A model generated the notes under the pieces. That model was not told the DNA's origin. It searched no databases and worked only from the letters and a program-made list of their open reading frames with translations. From positions 1 through 64,000 of the forward strand of contig JBBHKE010000487.1 in assembly GCA_037447655.1 (NCBI GenBank): a stretch of DNA of 64,000 nucleotides. Reading direction: 5' to 3'. This DNA is from Zygnema cylindricum (Eukaryota; Streptophyta; Zygnematophyceae; Zygnematales; Zygnemataceae). The translations under genes and the position numbers were made by a program. Of this stretch, positions 40,418 to 64,000 are shown one piece after another. Within the stretch, counting starts at the first letter, position 1; every line of letters starts with the position of its first letter.

Positions 40418-41780
40418 CTACGCCAGCTCGAAAAGGAAATGCGGAGCAAGGCTTTCTATTTGGAACAATGGACCTCCAAATGTCCACATAATTTCCCTAT
40501 TCACACTCAACACCCGGTTAGTATCCATGTCCACCACACGGAGAATGTCTGAGGAGACATTACAGTCCAAAGTGTCTAAGAAATTAACCGAGTCGATGGG
40601 AAAACCGGGCTCATTCGAAATTTTCGTCAATGAATGGCTGTCCTGAAGGAACTTTTTTGCCGAAAGAGAGTTTCAAATGTCTTCTCTAATGTTGAGACCA
40701 GTAAATGCCTGAAGAGCGGAAGCTAAATGTGTTATATTGTGCAACGGTTTGCGGGCAGAGATAAGTGGAAGGTATATTTTACATCTTGAAAATTTAGAGG
40801 GATGGTAAGAAAGGAGTTGATCGTGCATATCTACTCCTCCACCGATTCATAAGATAACTTCTAATCCAATTAAGCATTCGAAGTCGTTATATTTTGTGAC
40901 CAATGCTAGGACAAAAACCTCCACCGACTCACCCTTGAATCAATTTTGAGACAGAAAGACAAGCGTGTCTTTGTTGATCCCAAGCTTTGGTTACATGGTA
41001 CCCGCTATAATGAGGAGTTGTATAGCGGTGGCATTAAGCTTTTTTGCGGTCAGACCAAGCTTGAGTGCGAATCCGGATCCGATGATCACCGGTTTGGCTG
41101 TGGTGTCTATAAGAGGGAGAGAAGGAGCGACACCATCGACAAAGAATGACTTCCGAGAGTTGTCTAGGAAACTTATATGAGGGTCTAGGTTACGGCTTTC
41201 ATCTGCGGTAGCGAGCTGAAAAACCAACAGACTACGGTTCAGCTGCGGAGCTCTCAACGCGGCAGTTGAGGCGAGCTAGACAACAAGAGGTGTTGATTAA
41301 GGAACCATATTGACAAGAGGAGAGGCTTTAAGAACGTCATCTATCAAGGATTAAAGGATGCTCTGCCGTTCTTTGACCCGGTGTGCCCTATAGATGGTGG
41401 CATCAACAATAGTGAGGTCTTCAGCCGCAATGGAGGAAGTTGTGTATGGTAGAGGCGAGAGATTCTCTTTTTTGAACAAAAGTGGAATTCGAGAATTCTG
41501 TAGTTTTCCTTCCTCATTGTGATCACGCAAGTCTTTATCTAATGTAGATGCCTGTTGTTTGACAAATCAATCGGCCAACGACGACATGTGAAGGACTATC
41601 CTTACCATTCCGGTGAATTGCAATTTCATTTAAGCCATGAAGGCAACAAATTGCTCCTTCATCATGGCGGCCATCATGGCTTGCAACTCGACCTTTTACC
41701 TCGCTCGTAGAGAGATCTTAAGTGGAGTCGCTATTGTAATAAGGGAGTTGGTGTCACAGAAGAAGTAGAAGAAGCACCAA
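40418..41780 (-). pseudogene. Gag-protease relic on minus strand
   Basis: The minus strand from about 41780 reads MANIGASSTSSVTPTP, then a gag-like piece (MMAAMMKEQFVAFMA). Near 41190-41000 a retropepsin-like segment follows: SLPLIDTTAKPVIIGSGFAL, where DTTA stands for the usual DTGA and the I-I-G-x-G-F motif is typical of gag-aspartyl-protease domains. A last frame, 40630-40418 (NFLDTLDCNVSSDILRVVDM), is not recognised. Stops are frequent. It is probably a different LTR-element family from E and F. Confidence 0.5.
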
Positions 41781-55749: not shown

Positions 55750-56130
55750 ATGGGGCTTGCTGTTGGAGTAGCAAACAGCAAAAGGTTATTGCTTAGTCCA
55801 CCATGGAGGCTGAGTATATGGCCTCTTGCTCTGCTGTAAAAGAATTGATGTGGGTCAAGTCTTTGCTTGGTGAGCTAGGTCACCTTAAGAGTGGTGTGCA
55901 GATTTTTTTTTGTGATAATCAGGCAACGATCGCTATTTCTACCAATCCGAAACATCATTTTAAAGCCAAACACATGGACATTAGACTCAGCTTTGTTAGG
56001 GAGAAAGTAGAAAAAAAAAATAATCAGTTTAGAGTATCGACCAGATAGCGAGATGGTGGCATATATGATGACCAAACCTGTGCCTTCCCCAAAGTTAATT
56101 TTCTGCAGGGTAAAGTGTGGTTTGAAATTA
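55750..56130 (+). pseudogene. E2 RNase H, C-terminal half
   Basis: GACCWSSKQQKVIA, a stop, then STMEAEYMASCSAVKE (Glu), FFCDNQATIAIS (Asp) and HMDIRLSFVREKVE. A frameshift in an A-run near 56020 leads to EYRPDSEMVAYMMTKPV. A CTAGAAAATAAGGGGAG polypurine tract precedes the LTR at 56156. Confidence 0.85.
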
Positions 56131-56155
56131 AAGAGTGACTAGAAAATAAGGGGAG

Positions 56156-57265
56156 TGTAAAAATTGATGGTATGTTTTTAAGTATTTTCTAGGTCTAAAT
56201 AGAAATATAGAAAGAAGCTGAGGCAGTCTATCTCTAACTTCTCTCTCGAACTCTCATACTTGTCGCAATTATTGAGAAATTTGAGAGGAAGCTAGAGCAA
56301 TGGCTACCCAGGCTATCCAAAGGTTTACAGGAAAATATATTAGTTTATTTACCATTAGGAGTTGATTTACTAAAAATACATATGTTGCACCCAGGATTTG
56401 ATTTTGGTACCCGCCGGAGTGAAAGCAGTCGATAGCCGTTAGCCTTATCCGTTGCACCATAACTGGTGTTACGTACTATAGGGTTTGATATTGATTTAAA
56501 CATTTCCACGTAGGATAATTCATTTAACTGAAACTACTTACGGGATATATTGATCCAGTAGTGTAAAAGTACGGATTACGGTATGTATACAAAACGAGTA
56601 CCGCGCATTTGTTTCTTTAACAAAACAAATACCGCGCATGTATTTATGACGGCTCCGATTGAAATATGCATTCAATTAGACGGCCAGGAAGAAAGCCAAG
56701 ATCGCGGAAGAGATTCTCGGCGGTTTATGGTCATCGCCACATTGGATGACACGTGGCAAAAATACGTTGGATCGCGGTATCTCCGGAGATTACGACACCG
56801 AATCCGGATATGACATGTGTTGACTTTTAGGCCATGTCGTACAATGTCCGTACAAAAAGTACACCGGCAGCTGTACTTTTGTGTACGGAAGTGCAATATG
56901 ATAAGCTACGTACATCAAAAGATAGAGTCTGTGAGAGAGATAAGACTTAGAAAAAATTAGTAGATAGGGCCGTCTCTCCCATAGAGCTTCTGTACAAAGG
57001 TCAACTTTCATCCTGCATAACTTACTGCTCAGGGGAGCAAATTCAGAGATTCTTTTTGCTATCGACTCAAAGGAGTCTTTCTTTCAGAAGGGTGAAGGTA
57101 GTTAGAGTTTTTGTCTACCAAGGTGGCAGTTGTTATTGCTGAAACACAAAAGGGTCAGGGTTATCCTAGAGGCTTCTTGGAAGTTGTCCATTATGAGGAC
57201 TTATGGAGGTAGAGGCTTCTTCGAAGTTGTCCATTGTGAGGACTTATAGAGGTCTCAGAGTTTCA
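56156..57265 (+). repeat. E2 LTR (1110 bp)
   Basis: TGTAAAAATTGATGG...GAGTTTCA, aligned to the E LTRs. A 43-bp tandem duplication (57168-57210 and 57211-57253) near the end repeats AGAGGCTTCTTGGAAGTTGT and following bases. The gag ATG of E reads ATA here in the second unit (TTATAGAGG), while the first unit keeps ATGGAGG. Confidence 0.88.
56388..56465 (-). other. tRNA-like module in E2 LTR
   Basis: Antisense: GGTGCAACGGATAAGGCTAA (A-box-like) and AAAATCAAATCCTGGGT (B-box-like), in the usual LTR position. Confidence 0.5.
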
Positions 57266-60600: not shown

Positions 60601-61080
60601 TTGGGAATTAAAGTAGAAATAGATCGAAAAATAATAATTATAAGATTAACTTAAAAGGAAGCAATAGGGAACATGCTTGAAAAATTTTAGATGGATAAAG
60701 CTAATAGTTGTAAAACTCCAATGGAGTTAAAGAAAGGAAGTGACGGGAGTGAGGATGAATGAGTCATAGTCCTAGATGAGGAATTATCTCTTGAAGAACA
60801 GAAGTTCATGCAGACTATTCCTTACAAGCAAGTAGTGGGAAGTCTAATCTATTTTATGAATTGTACCCGGCCAAATTTAGGTGCAGCTGTAGGAGTGCTG
60901 AGTAGAAGGTTAAATGCTCCCACTAAGAGGGATTGGGAGGCAGCTAAGAGAGTCCTTAGATATTTGATAGGAACTAGGGATCTATGGTTGCAATTGGGTG
61001 GGGAGAATACTAACATCACTACTTGGAGTGATGCCAGTTATGGTGATGCTCCGATGAGGAGATGTACTTCTGGATATGTG
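60600..61080 (+). pseudogene. E2 RT end and RNase H, N-terminal half
   Basis: GEAKYILGIKVEID, then stops, then from 60808 IPYKQVVGSLIYFMNCTRPN and TTWSDASYGDAPMRRCTSGY (first catalytic Asp). The frame ends abruptly at 61080, where unrelated sequence starts. The missing half is at 55750-56130. Confidence 0.87.
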
Positions 61081-61300
61081 TCGAGCCCATGGTTGTGATG
61101 CTTCATGCAAGAAGAATAATATATGAAATGGGCGACAAATAACACTCCACGTGGAGAATTTCATATGTTTAAATAAAATGATCATCTTGACAACATTAGT
61201 GTGGACACATAGATGATTAAAACAATAAAAAGACAGAAAAGTTACCAACCCCGTCCCAAATGTTGGGACCGTCGGGTTCACTCTTGAATAATTCTCATCT
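61081..61300. other. Junction segment right of E2
   Basis: No recognised similarity or coding frame. It may be leader or decayed gag of the gypsy element that follows. A TGTTGGGACCGTCGGG word occurs at about 61261-61276. Confidence 0.25.
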
Positions 61301-62112
61301 CTCGACCCTGTTCCACCTTCTCGGCCTTCCGCCATATTAGTGGATCTTCTCATCCCATATTCTAAAGAGTTAGTTTGCACTTTGGCTAACTCCCATCAAA
61401 TTTCGGATGAAGAACTCATTTCGGCATTAGGATCTAAGATCACCGGCAGGGTGACATCCACAGATGCTTTTGGAGCACCCATTTCATCTTCCGATTCCAG
61501 TTTTGGTAGCACGGCGAAGGTTCAAATTGCGGATAGGGATTACTCTTCTTTGGTTGTTGCATATATTGGATATTCTTCTGGACACTTTAAGATTAACGGT
61601 TTCGGTGGTTTCCTCCAAACCGTGGATGATACTTGGGCCCTCCTAACCTTATCTCTACTAGTGCTTTGGAGAAATTGCCACCCAATTGTAGGCCGAAAGT
61701 ATTTTTCAGTAAGGTGTGCCTAAGCACGGTTATTAGTGGTAATCAACGAGTGTTTGGTATGGTCAAGGGTATGGATATCGAATTTGGAGATGATGTAGGT
61801 CAAAAGATTTCTATTCGTCTCCCATTTCTTGTGGTGGAGGGCAATCAGTTTGAAATTTTATTGGGAACCCATACATGGTCACGATTGGGAGCCATGGTAG
61901 ATTTTTGGAGTGAGCAAATCTGCATCTGGGATTTGTCAACTTCCCTCGCTCGCCGCGTTTTTGTCCCTCTCACTTTGTGGGGACGTCATCATTCCCAGAA
62001 AGCGGCTCCAGGCTGCTACCCAGTCTACACTAGCAATTCTTTCTCAATTCATTCTTCTAAATTTTCCATTGAATCGGAGGATGAATCCACCAACATTGCC
62101 CCCCTTATATAG
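61300..62112 (+). pseudogene. Gypsy pre-protease and aspartic protease
   Basis: 61300-61720 is open: SKELVCTLANSHQISDEELI, then FKINGFGGFLQTVDDT, the strand before the retropepsin site. The active site is broken by a frameshift: VDDT in one frame and GPPNLISTSALEKLP in the next (about 61635-61680), a form like the D-T-G-A-x-x-N-L-I-S of gypsy proteases. PFLVVEGNQFEILLGTHTWS (about 61825-61885) is the conserved ILG-type C-terminal strand. Confidence 0.75.
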
Positions 62113-62279
62113 CAATTCTCAATCTCCACTGAGTGGGAGGAATCCCACAAACGGAGATTGGAGGTAGCGGCTTCTTTGAGACGATGTCACGAAAAGGTGT
62201 TCAATGATTTGATAGATGAGAAGACATTACCGTGTTAAACAAATGTATCCAAAAGAAGAACCGAATTTTGACATTTTGT

Positions 62280-63309
62280 TCAGGGGCATATTTTGACGCC
62301 ACTTCCTCGAGAGGTGGTTCATTTGACACCACAGCCGGCAGGGTTAACAGTAGTCTCTTTATTTTCTGGCATTAGTACGAATTTAGAAGCTATATTGATG
62401 AACTGCCACCAGATTAGAAGTTATTGGGCCGTGGAAATTTCATCTTCAACTTGGACAGCGAGTGAATTTCGACTATTAGAGCTTCATCGATTGTACCCTC
62501 TCGAATTACCTGTATGTGCTATTTCACAATCTCATCATCGACTCCCACAAAATGTTGACTTAATTACTTCACAAGATATCCGAGATTTGGGGGGGGTAGA
62601 TTTAGTGATAGCTGGTTGGCCTTGTCAAAGATATTATAGGCAGGGAAAATAAGGGGAAATAGTGACACTCGGAGTCGTTTATTTTATCAGATGGTTTATA
62701 TCCTCAACCTTTTACAGCTACATCAACATAAGCCGTTTGGATACTTGTTGGAAAATGTCTTCCCTGGTGCGGATCAACGTAGTAAGGTAGTTATTGCTTG
62801 GCAAGAGACCATTCACTATTTGGGGGAACCTTTAGTATTTGATGCAGCTCAGATGGGGTCTTGTGCTTTCCGTCTTCGCTCATATTGAACTATCTTGCTC
62901 CTCTTCCAGTGTTAAAGGCCGCCGTGGGATTACAAAAGCGTCCGCCAAATCTCACCGTCAATCAGATTTTAGACAAAGGCCGTACAGCTACTCCTGTCGC
63001 ATCTACATCTCGACAACTATTTTTTGACTGCAACAAATGTGGTCAACCAAGAAACCCACTTCCCACTCTGGTTTCATTTCCTCAGAGCCAACTTATTGTT
63101 TAGGTTCCCATGGCATGATCTTTGACACTAATACAAAGAAATGGGATGTGCCCAATATCAATGAACGAGAACGAGCCATGGGTTTTTGCACCAATACTAT
63201 TGCCGCTCCTAATCTCTCCCGTGACACCCGTTGCCGTTTGATTGGTCAAGCTATGGATTTACACGCATTACAGTGGTTAGTTGGTCTTACACTATCTCAT
63301 GGTCCTTAG
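62280..63309 (+). pseudogene. C5 cytosine DNA methyltransferase domain inside gypsy pol
   Basis: This enzyme class transfers methyl from S-adenosylmethionine to cytosine C5. Motif I: LTVVSLFSGISTN (about 62344-62385). Motif II: WAVEIS (about 62425). Motif IV: DLVIAGWPCQ, with the catalytic PCQ at about 62622-62630. After a frameshift at about 62650, GNSDTRSRLFYQMV and motif VI GYLLENVFPG (about 62738-62768). Motif VIII: FRLRSYW-like, then a frameshift. Motifs IX-X: NERERAMGF (about 63160-63190) and RCRLIGQAMDLHAL (about 63226-63270). The order is canonical (I to X), unlike rearranged plant DRM enzymes; the short size and motif style recall DNMT3-type catalytic domains. At least three breaks make this copy non-functional as read. 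Confidence 0.85.
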
Positions 63310-64000
63310 CATTCTTACCAGCATTGCATTTCATTTTTACAAGCTCCAGCTCGCCTGGCTATGTAAGTCACACTAGCGCTTGGGGGGGGGGGAGAGATAG
63401 AAAAATTCATCAAAAGATCCAACAACAGAAAACCAAGGAGGGGAGACCAAAAGAACAAGAGAAGGAAGTACATAAGGTAGAGGATGTTTTGTCGGTGTTT
63501 AGTAGGGTGTTACAGGAAAGAGATAGAGCAAAGGGGTTAGGGGGGGACGAGTTTGATCTGTCCCAGTGGACGAGGCCACCGGAGAGTTTTGCAGCTGTAG
63601 AACCGGCGAAGATGGATTAGATTATTGGAGAACGTTTAGAGGAGAGCCAAAAGTCTAGAATTGTGGATCTATTGGGAACGAATAGGCATGTGTTTTCGTG
63701 GGCTGATTCAGATATTGGGATTTACAAGGGCACACCATTTTGGGATTGACATAGTGGACGAATCAACGACAGTGTGGCAAAAGCAGTATCCTTTGAGCCA
63801 CTCAGAGAAAGAATTTGTGAAAGAGAAAGTCCAAAGTTTGGTTAATTCAGGATTAGTACAGGAAAGCACTGGTCTTCATGGGTTTGCCTCCCCAACTGTA
63901 CTGCCTCTGAAGAAAGATTCTACAGGGAAGATTGTAGACTTCCGAATGTGTGGAGACTATTGAATGTTAAATGCAGCCACTATATCGGACAAGTATCATA
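63310..64000 (+). pseudogene. Gypsy linker and reverse transcriptase N-terminus (cut by window end)
   Basis: A charged linker (63400-63620; KIHQKIQQQKTKEGRPKEQE) leads to RIVDLLGTNRHVFSWA and, after a frameshift near 63720, HFGIDIVDESTTVW, EKEFVKEKVQSLVNSGLVQE, FASPTVLPLKKDSTG and DFRMCGDY, the gypsy RT fingers. A stop follows and MLNAATISDKYH continues to the window end. Palm motifs (YxDD) lie beyond. Confidence 0.85.

What the first reader, a model, noticed from the sequence alone, without database searches (positions are those of the whole stretch)
61300..64000. A DNA cytosine methyltransferase is built into a Ty3/gypsy polyprotein, between protease and reverse transcriptase
Seen: protease strands (GFGGFLQTVDDT, ILLGTHTWS), then C5-methyltransferase motifs I, II, IV (PCQ), VI (ENV), VIII, IX and X in order over about 1 kb, then gypsy RT fingers, all on one strand. 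Known: de Mendoza and colleagues (2018) described methyltransferases independently captured by retrotransposons in charophytes and dinoflagellates and showed that such enzymes can methylate CG sites de novo. Inference: the element may have methylated its own cDNA or influenced silencing. This copy looks like a diverged member in a copia-rich genome, and its host and exact clade may be undescribed.
Basis: partly seen in the sequence, partly recalled or inferred. Interest (0 to 1): 0.92.

Follow-up and report, generated by a model that had tools for sequence, protein, structure and literature searches.

The report
Gypsy retrotransposon carrying a DNMT3 methyltransferase
The end of this window holds a decayed copy of an algal or plant-type jumping element that carries its own DNA-methylating enzyme; sister copies show it is a real, long-lived family, an unusual extension of a kind first reported in 2018.

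Summary
Window 61292-64000 is the left part of a decayed Ty3/gypsy-type pol fragment: protease, C5-methyltransferase, reverse transcriptase; past the window follow RNase H, integrase and a PHD finger. It is not a one-off: searched as DNA it gives 51 matches in its genome (itself included), five other copies spanning protease to RT at 88-93% identity. The enzyme is DNMT3-type by profile and fold, under purifying selection, with catalytic residues kept. Two deep subfamilies occur, A (the window's) and B. Both show the A-coding-B-A-B repeats reported for KnitGypsy-Dnmt3 of Klebsormidium (de Mendoza 2018), so the kind is known. New here: (1) all 11 group A copies checked keep a UAG with a tobamovirus-like context between protease and pol; (2) the ends are TGTC...GACA with exact 4-bp target duplications in three young copies, and the palindrome GACAGCTGTC lies inside the repeat, which suggests a DDE integrase acting on circular cDNA; (3) the methyltransferase's two places in pol (before RT, or between RNase H and integrase) need one change on each of two trees; (4) relatives occur in Closterium, Marchantia, Tetraselmis and many unnamed contigs. 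What the enzyme does for the element is unproven; CpG depletion gives self-methylation no support.

The parts
61292..62046 (+). remains of the gypsy aspartic protease (C-terminal part of the gag-protease frame), one frame change near 61640
   Evidence: 38% and 53% identity to the protease of L015, which itself matches PF13650 weakly (E 2e-4, 22.3 bits, cut-off 24.3)
62110..62112 (+). UAG stop between protease and pol, followed by CAA UUC
   Evidence: UAG at this place in 11 of 11 group A copies in which the border was held
62338..63360 (+). DNMT3-type C5-cytosine methyltransferase domain, broken by frameshifts and a stop
   Evidence: four pieces, 48-56% identity to L015; DNMT3 class on sister copies
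63669..64000 (+). start of the gypsy reverse transcriptase (continues to about 64996 in contig C375, then integrase 65345-66448 and PHD finger 66470-66667)
   Evidence: 67-72% identity to L015 RT in the window part; for the PHD finger
61079..61294 (.). left arm of a 216-bp inverted repeat (other arm 66721-66936) that bounds the fragment; next to a decayed copia element
   Evidence: 92.6% identity

Best explanation
The window holds a decayed copy of a family of gypsy-type retrotransposons that has carried a DNMT3-type cytosine methyltransferase inside pol for a long time. Shown: domain order, DNMT3 class, purifying selection, the conserved UAG in group A, the A-coding-B-A-B repeats, 4-bp target duplications. 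Inferred: in group A, gag-protease ends at a leaky UAG and a minority of ribosomes read through to make MTase-RT-RNase H-integrase-PHD. RT makes cDNA whose LTR in the reverse-transcription sense is B.A, starting near a G-tract; the ends are joined into a circle; integrase nicks after CA on both strands of the palindrome GACAGCTGTC at the internal B|A junction, giving TGTC and GACA ends, and inserts with a 4-bp duplication, hence the permuted A-coding-B-A-B. The MTase, tethered to RT and integrase, most likely methylates the new cDNA or the DNA around the insertion before host silencing sets in. My odds: family and DNMT3 assignment 0.95; readthrough 0.75; circular intermediate 0.5; an active DNA methyltransferase in intact copies 0.7; cDNA as its main substrate 0.4.
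For: Order PR-MT-RT in 17 of 19 mapped copies; five other copies unbroken from PR to RT (40 of 395 candidates scored); 123 scored PF00145 matches of 782 candidates. PDB profile search: the 29 best distinct sequences are all DNMT3A/B/C (E 7e-20 to 8e-15), next HaeIII 3e-8, DRM2 6e-7; all 50 listed Foldseek hits are DNMT3 structures. MTase dN/dS 0.13-0.19 in the four pairs with small dS; catalytic Cys in 107 of 110 and motif VI Glu in 109 of 110 MTases of the family. UAG in 11 of 11 group A copies with a hairpin just downstream, z -4.0 and -2.3 in two A2 copies. TSDs TTGG, AAGG, CCCT exact in the three copies with 99-100% identical repeats. Palindrome once in each of 8 copies, at the B|A junction each time, nowhere else in the 370,059 bases held (junctions).
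Against: CpG observed/expected: one MTase-less copia stretch 0.44, group A 0.62-0.69, group B 0.89-0.94, so CpG loss does not follow the MTase. The MTase is less constrained than its neighbours: dN 0.41 against 0.14-0.17 between A1 and A2, 0.13-0.18 against 0.05-0.09 in B. Of nine copies with both ends read, three have exact TSDs, C1100 and C449 3 of 4 bases, C1042 2 of 4 with an altered end, and C783, C544, C1374 end A-coding-B with unmatched flanks. No TGG-type primer site follows A1. The stop context is CAAUUC or CAAUUG, not full CARYYA, and all six letters mattered in one mammalian reporter (passage); the hairpin is weak in A1 (z -1.2, -1.4). The folded model is poor (pLDDT 61.5). No activity, expression or methylome data.
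Confidence: 0.58

Rival explanations
1. A host DNMT3 gene or retrocopy was inserted by chance into one gypsy copy; the window is a one-off chimera.
For: The window copy is itself broken and truncated.
Against: Same arrangement in 17 of 19 mapped copies, five other unbroken 88-93% copies, two deep subfamilies and relatives elsewhere.
Confidence: 0.01
2. The domain is kept but not as a cytosine-DNA methyltransferase: it binds nucleic acid or methylates another substrate (RNA, RNA:DNA hybrid), as motif IV Pro is Glu in about half of the family.
For: ECQ in 57 of 110 MTases including all five group B copies aligned, at least 9 P/E changes on a 66-row tree; no CpG depletion in group B; MTase dN higher than RT and integrase dN; the Klebsormidium enzyme showed no activity in yeast, inconclusive by its authors (PMC5890265).
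Against: Catalytic Cys, motif VI Glu and motif VIII Arg kept in 107, 109 and 108 of 110; dN/dS well under 1; the window and group A keep PCQ.
Confidence: 0.25
3. The element methylates itself to be silenced early, limiting damage to the host (self-restraint).
For: Private changes of three A2 copies are richest in C>T at CG (0.059-0.123 per site) and CHG (0.068-0.094) against CHH (0.029-0.047), so copies were probably methylated in the genome; the 2018 paper lists slowed retrotransposition as a possibility.
Against: CG plus CHG bias looks like the host's plant-type machinery, and a chromomethylase-like host exon exists; the one MTase-less copia stretch looked at is more CpG-depleted.
Confidence: 0.15
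4. The A-coding-B-A-B form is made by an unusual reverse transcription on a linear template, not by integration from a circle.
For: No primer site identified; no cDNA data; three copies end A-coding-B.
Against: B1 follows a G-tract by 0-4 bases while B2 follows A2 without the tract; the palindrome keeps two extra bases GC between CA and TG.
Confidence: 0.4

Closest known systems
KnitGypsy-Dnmt3 of Klebsormidium nitens (de Mendoza et al. 2018, PMC5890265)
   Same: DNMT3-type MTase in the Pol of a gypsy element, DIRS-like repeat arrangement, purifying selection on the MTase
   Different: No KnitGypsy sequence was available, so kinship is untested. A term search of the main text found no PHD and no target site, and 'stop codon' once, for LINEs; a palindrome is not mentioned in parts 1-4, which I read, and was not searched for in the rest. 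Its Pol order is in a figure that is not held
SymbioDIRS-Dnmt3 and SymbioLINE-Dnmt of Symbiodinium (same paper)
   Same: DNMT in a retrotransposon; SymbioDIRS also occurs in two domain orders and has A-coding-B-A-B repeats
   Different: DIRS uses a tyrosine recombinase; here gypsy RT, RNase H and DDE integrase with 4-bp target duplications
Streptophyte DNMT3 genes (Physcomitrium DNMT3a/b, PMC6453930, passages)
   Same: DNMT3-type catalytic domain, not rearranged as in DRM
   Different: host genes carry DUF3444; here the domain is embedded in pol
Chromoviruses (gypsy with a chromodomain after integrase; recalled)
   Same: a chromatin-reader type module at the integrase C-terminus
   Different: a PHD finger instead of a chromodomain

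Membership tests
Ty3/gypsy element (judged by its proteins) | order PR-RT-RNase H-integrase with gypsy-type RT/RNase H and DDE integrase | tested here: met
   PF00078, PF17917, PF17921, PF00665 in L015 and L011
standard LTR retrotransposon (judged by its ends) | two identical LTRs at the ends | tested here: not met
   ends are TG...CA but the left repeat lacks B: A-coding-B-A-B. I therefore claim gypsy membership for the polyprotein only
standard LTR retrotransposon (judged by its ends) | tRNA primer site after the 5' LTR | tested here: inconclusive
   nine copies read by eye: none starts TGG directly after A1; the stretch is alike only among close copies
DIRS retrotransposon | tyrosine recombinase, no target duplication (recalled) | tested here: not met
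   DDE integrase and exact 4-bp target duplications in 3 of 9 copies
DNMT3 | closest to DNMT3 catalytic domains by profile and fold | tested here: met
DNMT3 | groups with eukaryotic DNMT3 on a tree with host DNMT3, DRM, DNMT1 | not tested
   no protein named as a host DNMT3 among the hits
KnitGypsy-Dnmt3 kind | DNMT3 in gypsy Pol with DIRS-like repeats | tested here: met
   against the description
KnitGypsy-Dnmt3 kind | common descent with the Klebsormidium element | not testable with these tools
   no listed hit is named Klebsormidium; the sequence is not held
PHD finger | match above the Pfam cut-off (24 bits) | tested here: met
   window copy 24.7 bits, group B L013 47.2 and L012 45.2; L015 17.5 and the cut-off piece of L014 21.2 stay below

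The most novel reading that the evidence does not exclude
A gypsy lineage replicates through a circular cDNA: its DDE integrase opens the circle at a perfect palindrome (GACAGCTGTC) inside the LTR rather than using the linear cDNA ends, and the pol-tethered DNMT3 methylates that circle. Circular permutation, an integrase-type 4-bp duplication and a built-in methyltransferase would make it a third way of integrating, between LTR elements and DIRS elements, in green algae and bryophytes.
Probability: 0.28. Interest if true: 0.8.

Novelty: new variant of a known kind. Interest (0 to 1): 0.62.

Why it matters
It turns a report from one charophyte (a DNMT3 in Klebsormidium gypsy elements) into a broad family with recent insertions in a second genome, with one change of the enzyme's place in pol, a recurrent Pro/Glu switch in the active-site motif, and a testable circular route of integration by a retroviral-type integrase.

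Tried and rejected
Self-methylation read from CpG depletion: rejected as evidence. A one-off insertion: rejected. Bacterial or phage origin: two short non-element hits at 29% identity (P0057, P0058; I take them for phage enzymes) are the best outside the family, but the PDB profile puts DNMT3 far ahead; no host DNMT3 was recognised among the hits, so the source of capture is open. Protease-like remains at 40580-41191 (minus) were checked as an MTase-less sister: a 27-residue integrase-tail match follows directly (E 7e-4), so the middle seems deleted; not informative. IMG/VR scan: 1 distant locus at 29%, not looked at further. rbcL in the assembly: 0 matches. Paper search by assembly size: none of the 35 listed titles was an evident host. 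Host guess: Zygnema cf. cylindricum SAG 698-1a_XF, 359.8 Mb, 3,587 scaffolds, Copia 29.8%, Gypsy 5.9%, against 352.8 Mb and 2,689 contigs here (PMC11096116, passages); inference only. An RT-based, MTase-blind survey of the genome did not complete. Papers: PMC5890265 parts 1-4 of 7 read plus passages; PMC12344493, PMC6453930, PMC11096116, PMC2754532, PMC4132726 passages only; all others seen in search listings. Searches behind 'not found in print'.

Full report
Observation. Window 61292-64000 (+) carries, in order, protease, C5-methyltransferase and the first part of a gypsy RT. The copy continues past the window as RT/RNase H, integrase and PHD finger to about 66667. It is a decayed fragment: pieces in different frames, no gag or terminal repeat found, a 216-bp inverted repeat at both sides. 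Pfam sees the window's own MTase pieces only weakly and the protease and RT pieces not at all; sister copies settle the identity.

Not a one-off. The genome (352.8 Mb, 2,689 contigs) has 123 scored PF00145 matches out of 782 first-look candidates; at least one, C514, is a host gene instead. With window 61300-64000 as DNA query there are 51 matches (40 of 395 candidates scored). The window is one; C1735 (93%), C1100 (92%), C895 (89%), C2462 (88%) and C1515 (88%) match from base 8 or 14 to 2701 without a break. No set of matches in that table shows protease and RT with the MTase missing, but the query favours copies like the window. Among 19 MTase-bearing element copies mapped (11 group A, 8 group B), 17 show protease, MTase and RT in that order, and two of group A (C633, C412) break off in or just after the MTase with no RT in the stretch held.

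Two subfamilies. Group A (the window's; subgroups A1 such as L015 and A2 such as C1735) and group B (L011) share 39-41% identity in the MTase; A1 and A2 share 56%. Both groups end with a PHD finger after the integrase: L013 47.2 and L012 45.2 bits, the window copy 24.7, cut-off 24; L015 (17.5) and the truncated L014 piece (21.2) fall below. The same module is found in relatives P0004, P0005, P0013 and P0015.

Enzyme class. A profile of six MTases finds 29 DNMT3A/B/C sequences first in the PDB (E 7e-20 to 8e-15), then HaeIII (3e-8), HhaI and DRM2 (6e-7). Foldseek with a low-confidence model (pLDDT 61.5) lists only DNMT3 structures among its 50 shown hits. Motifs run I to X, not in the DRM order. 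Across 110 MTases of the family (own copies and database hits, not all shown to lie in elements) the catalytic Cys is kept in 107, motif VI Glu in 109, two motif VIII Arg in 108 and 106; motif IV Pro is Glu in 57 and Pro in 49, with at least 9 changes on a 66-row tree, 63 rows scored, shuffled mean 17.4. Group A and the window have PCQ, group B ECQ.

Selection. Nei-Gojobori dN/dS of the MTase is 0.15, 0.13, 0.17 (A1 pairs; L020 and L035 hold stop codons, skipped) and 0.19 (a B pair); RT gives 0.08 and 0.14, integrase 0.09. One more MTase pair gave 0.06 at near-saturated dS; the rest are saturated. There the MTase changes faster than its neighbours: dN 0.41 against 0.14-0.17 (RT) and 0.14 (integrase) between A1 and A2, and 0.13-0.18 against 0.05-0.07 and 0.06-0.09 in B.

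UAG. In 11 of 11 group A copies whose border was held (contigs C633, C1042, C412, C1374, C507, C375, C544, C1735, C1965, C47, C1100) UAG stands between protease and pol in frame with both, followed by CAAUUC in ten and CAAUUG in one. The tobamovirus leaky-stop context is UAG CARYYA (passages in PMC2754532 and PMC4132726); five of six letters fit, and the second paper found all six to matter in a mammalian reporter. A hairpin starts a few bases downstream: z -4.0 (C1735), -2.3 (window), -1.2 and -1.4 (A1 copies); only these four were folded. Group B L011 is one open frame across this border.

Ends. Repeats are A-coding-B-A-B in both groups. A begins TGTC, B ends GACA. Nine copies had both ends read: exact 4-bp duplications in C1344 (TTGG), C829 (AAGG) and C1915 (CCCT), whose repeats are 99-100% identical; 3 of 4 bases in C1100 (TCTT/TCTC) and C449 (TCAT/GCAT); 2 of 4 in C1042, whose start is altered; none in C783, C544 and C1374, which end at B against foreign DNA. 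For C1407 no left repeat was found in the stretch held. In C1344 the two A repeats are identical over 931 bp, so insertion was recent. GACAGCTGTC occurs 8 times in the 370,059 bases held (some stretches held twice), once in each of eight copies, at the B|A junction each time. A G-tract lies 0-4 bases 5' of B1 in C1344, C1374, C544, C829, C1915, C449, C1042 and C1100, while B2 follows A2 without it. My reading: B.A is the LTR in the reverse-transcription sense, A2|B2 joins the two cDNA ends, and integrase cuts at the internal palindrome; nicking after CA on both strands would give the usual two-base 5' overhang (recalled for retroviral integrases). This is inference; the 2018 paper says only that the Klebsormidium repeats are arranged as in DIRS. 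No TGG-type primer site follows A1 in nine copies read by eye.

Relatives. Three protein searches, each scoring just under 8,000 candidates, gave 18, 83 and 456 hits (the last lists 120). Named sources: Marchantia polymorpha and Closterium (MTase present), Tetraselmis (JGI code Tetstr1, my reading; partial MTase in P0208 and P0215), Haematococcus lacustris (no MTase seen), Cordylochernes scorpioides (no MTase), and one bacterial MAG label that I take for a misplaced contig. The weakest hits are bacterial methyltransferases. Most of the element relatives are unnamed. Of 132 proteins mapped, 27 have the MTase before RT, 45 between RT/RNase H and integrase, 7 have an MTase but no RT in the piece, and 53 show none, many of these starting near RT so that an upstream MTase could be cut off. 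On the RT-integrase tree (121 rows: 115 of the 132 plus 6 own; quick method, LG+G4) the two places need one change when rows without MTase are set aside, and 17 changes if 'none' counts as a third state. On the MTase tree (66 rows; shorter pieces and subgroup A2 left out) one branch separates them, 100/99 support, in 100% of 200 bootstrap trees. Rooting on the Cordylochernes elements suggests the place before RT is the older one, but the base is unresolved.

Function. Private changes in three A2 copies (window, C1735, C1100) are richest in C>T at CG (0.123, 0.059, 0.074 per site) and CHG (0.068, 0.094, 0.094) against CHH (0.030, 0.029, 0.047), as expected if host plant-type methylation marked them; a host chromomethylase-like exon is present (L034). 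CpG observed/expected is 0.44 in the window's copia stretch, 0.73 in the whole window, 0.62-0.69 in group A and 0.89-0.94 in group B, which speaks against using CpG loss as proof of self-methylation.

Known or new. DNMT3 in gypsy Pol with DIRS-like repeats was published in 2018 for Klebsormidium, and a 2025 paper repeats that report for streptophytes (it names the family Copia; passage). The present family is a new variant in another genome, with features I did not find in the texts searched. Kinship with KnitGypsy-Dnmt3 could not be tested.

Noticed in passing
window 40499-41191 and 41603-41725 (-): protease- and gag-like remains 49% and 63% identical to group B, followed directly by a 27-residue integrase-tail match: a related gypsy fragment with its middle missing
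   Followed up: partly
contig C375 66955-69435 (just past the window): a 2.5-kb stretch that is its own inverted repeat (89.5% identity)
   Followed up: no
window 56045-57210 and contig C375 69769-70935: direct repeat of about 1.17 kb at 87.6% identity on both sides of the fragment, perhaps copia-related
   Followed up: no
L034 1478-1777 (+): exon of a host chromomethylase-like DNA methyltransferase (best PDB match 4fsx and kin, 104 bits, which I recall as maize ZMET2; next DNMT1 entries about 51 bits)
   Followed up: partly
L015 397-3783 (+): long gag-side frame of over 1,100 residues without Pfam match before the protease, broken by one stop
   Followed up: no
contig C544 116589-117990 (L025) and 121207 onwards: a solo A-B repeat and an element in opposite orientation have swapped 4-bp flanks (AGCT, GAAC), as if an inversion joined two insertions
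   Followed up: partly
P0173 and P0203 (relatives): precomputed Pfam domains list PF00385 (chromodomain, recalled) together with the PHD finger; the MTase is found in both
   Followed up: no
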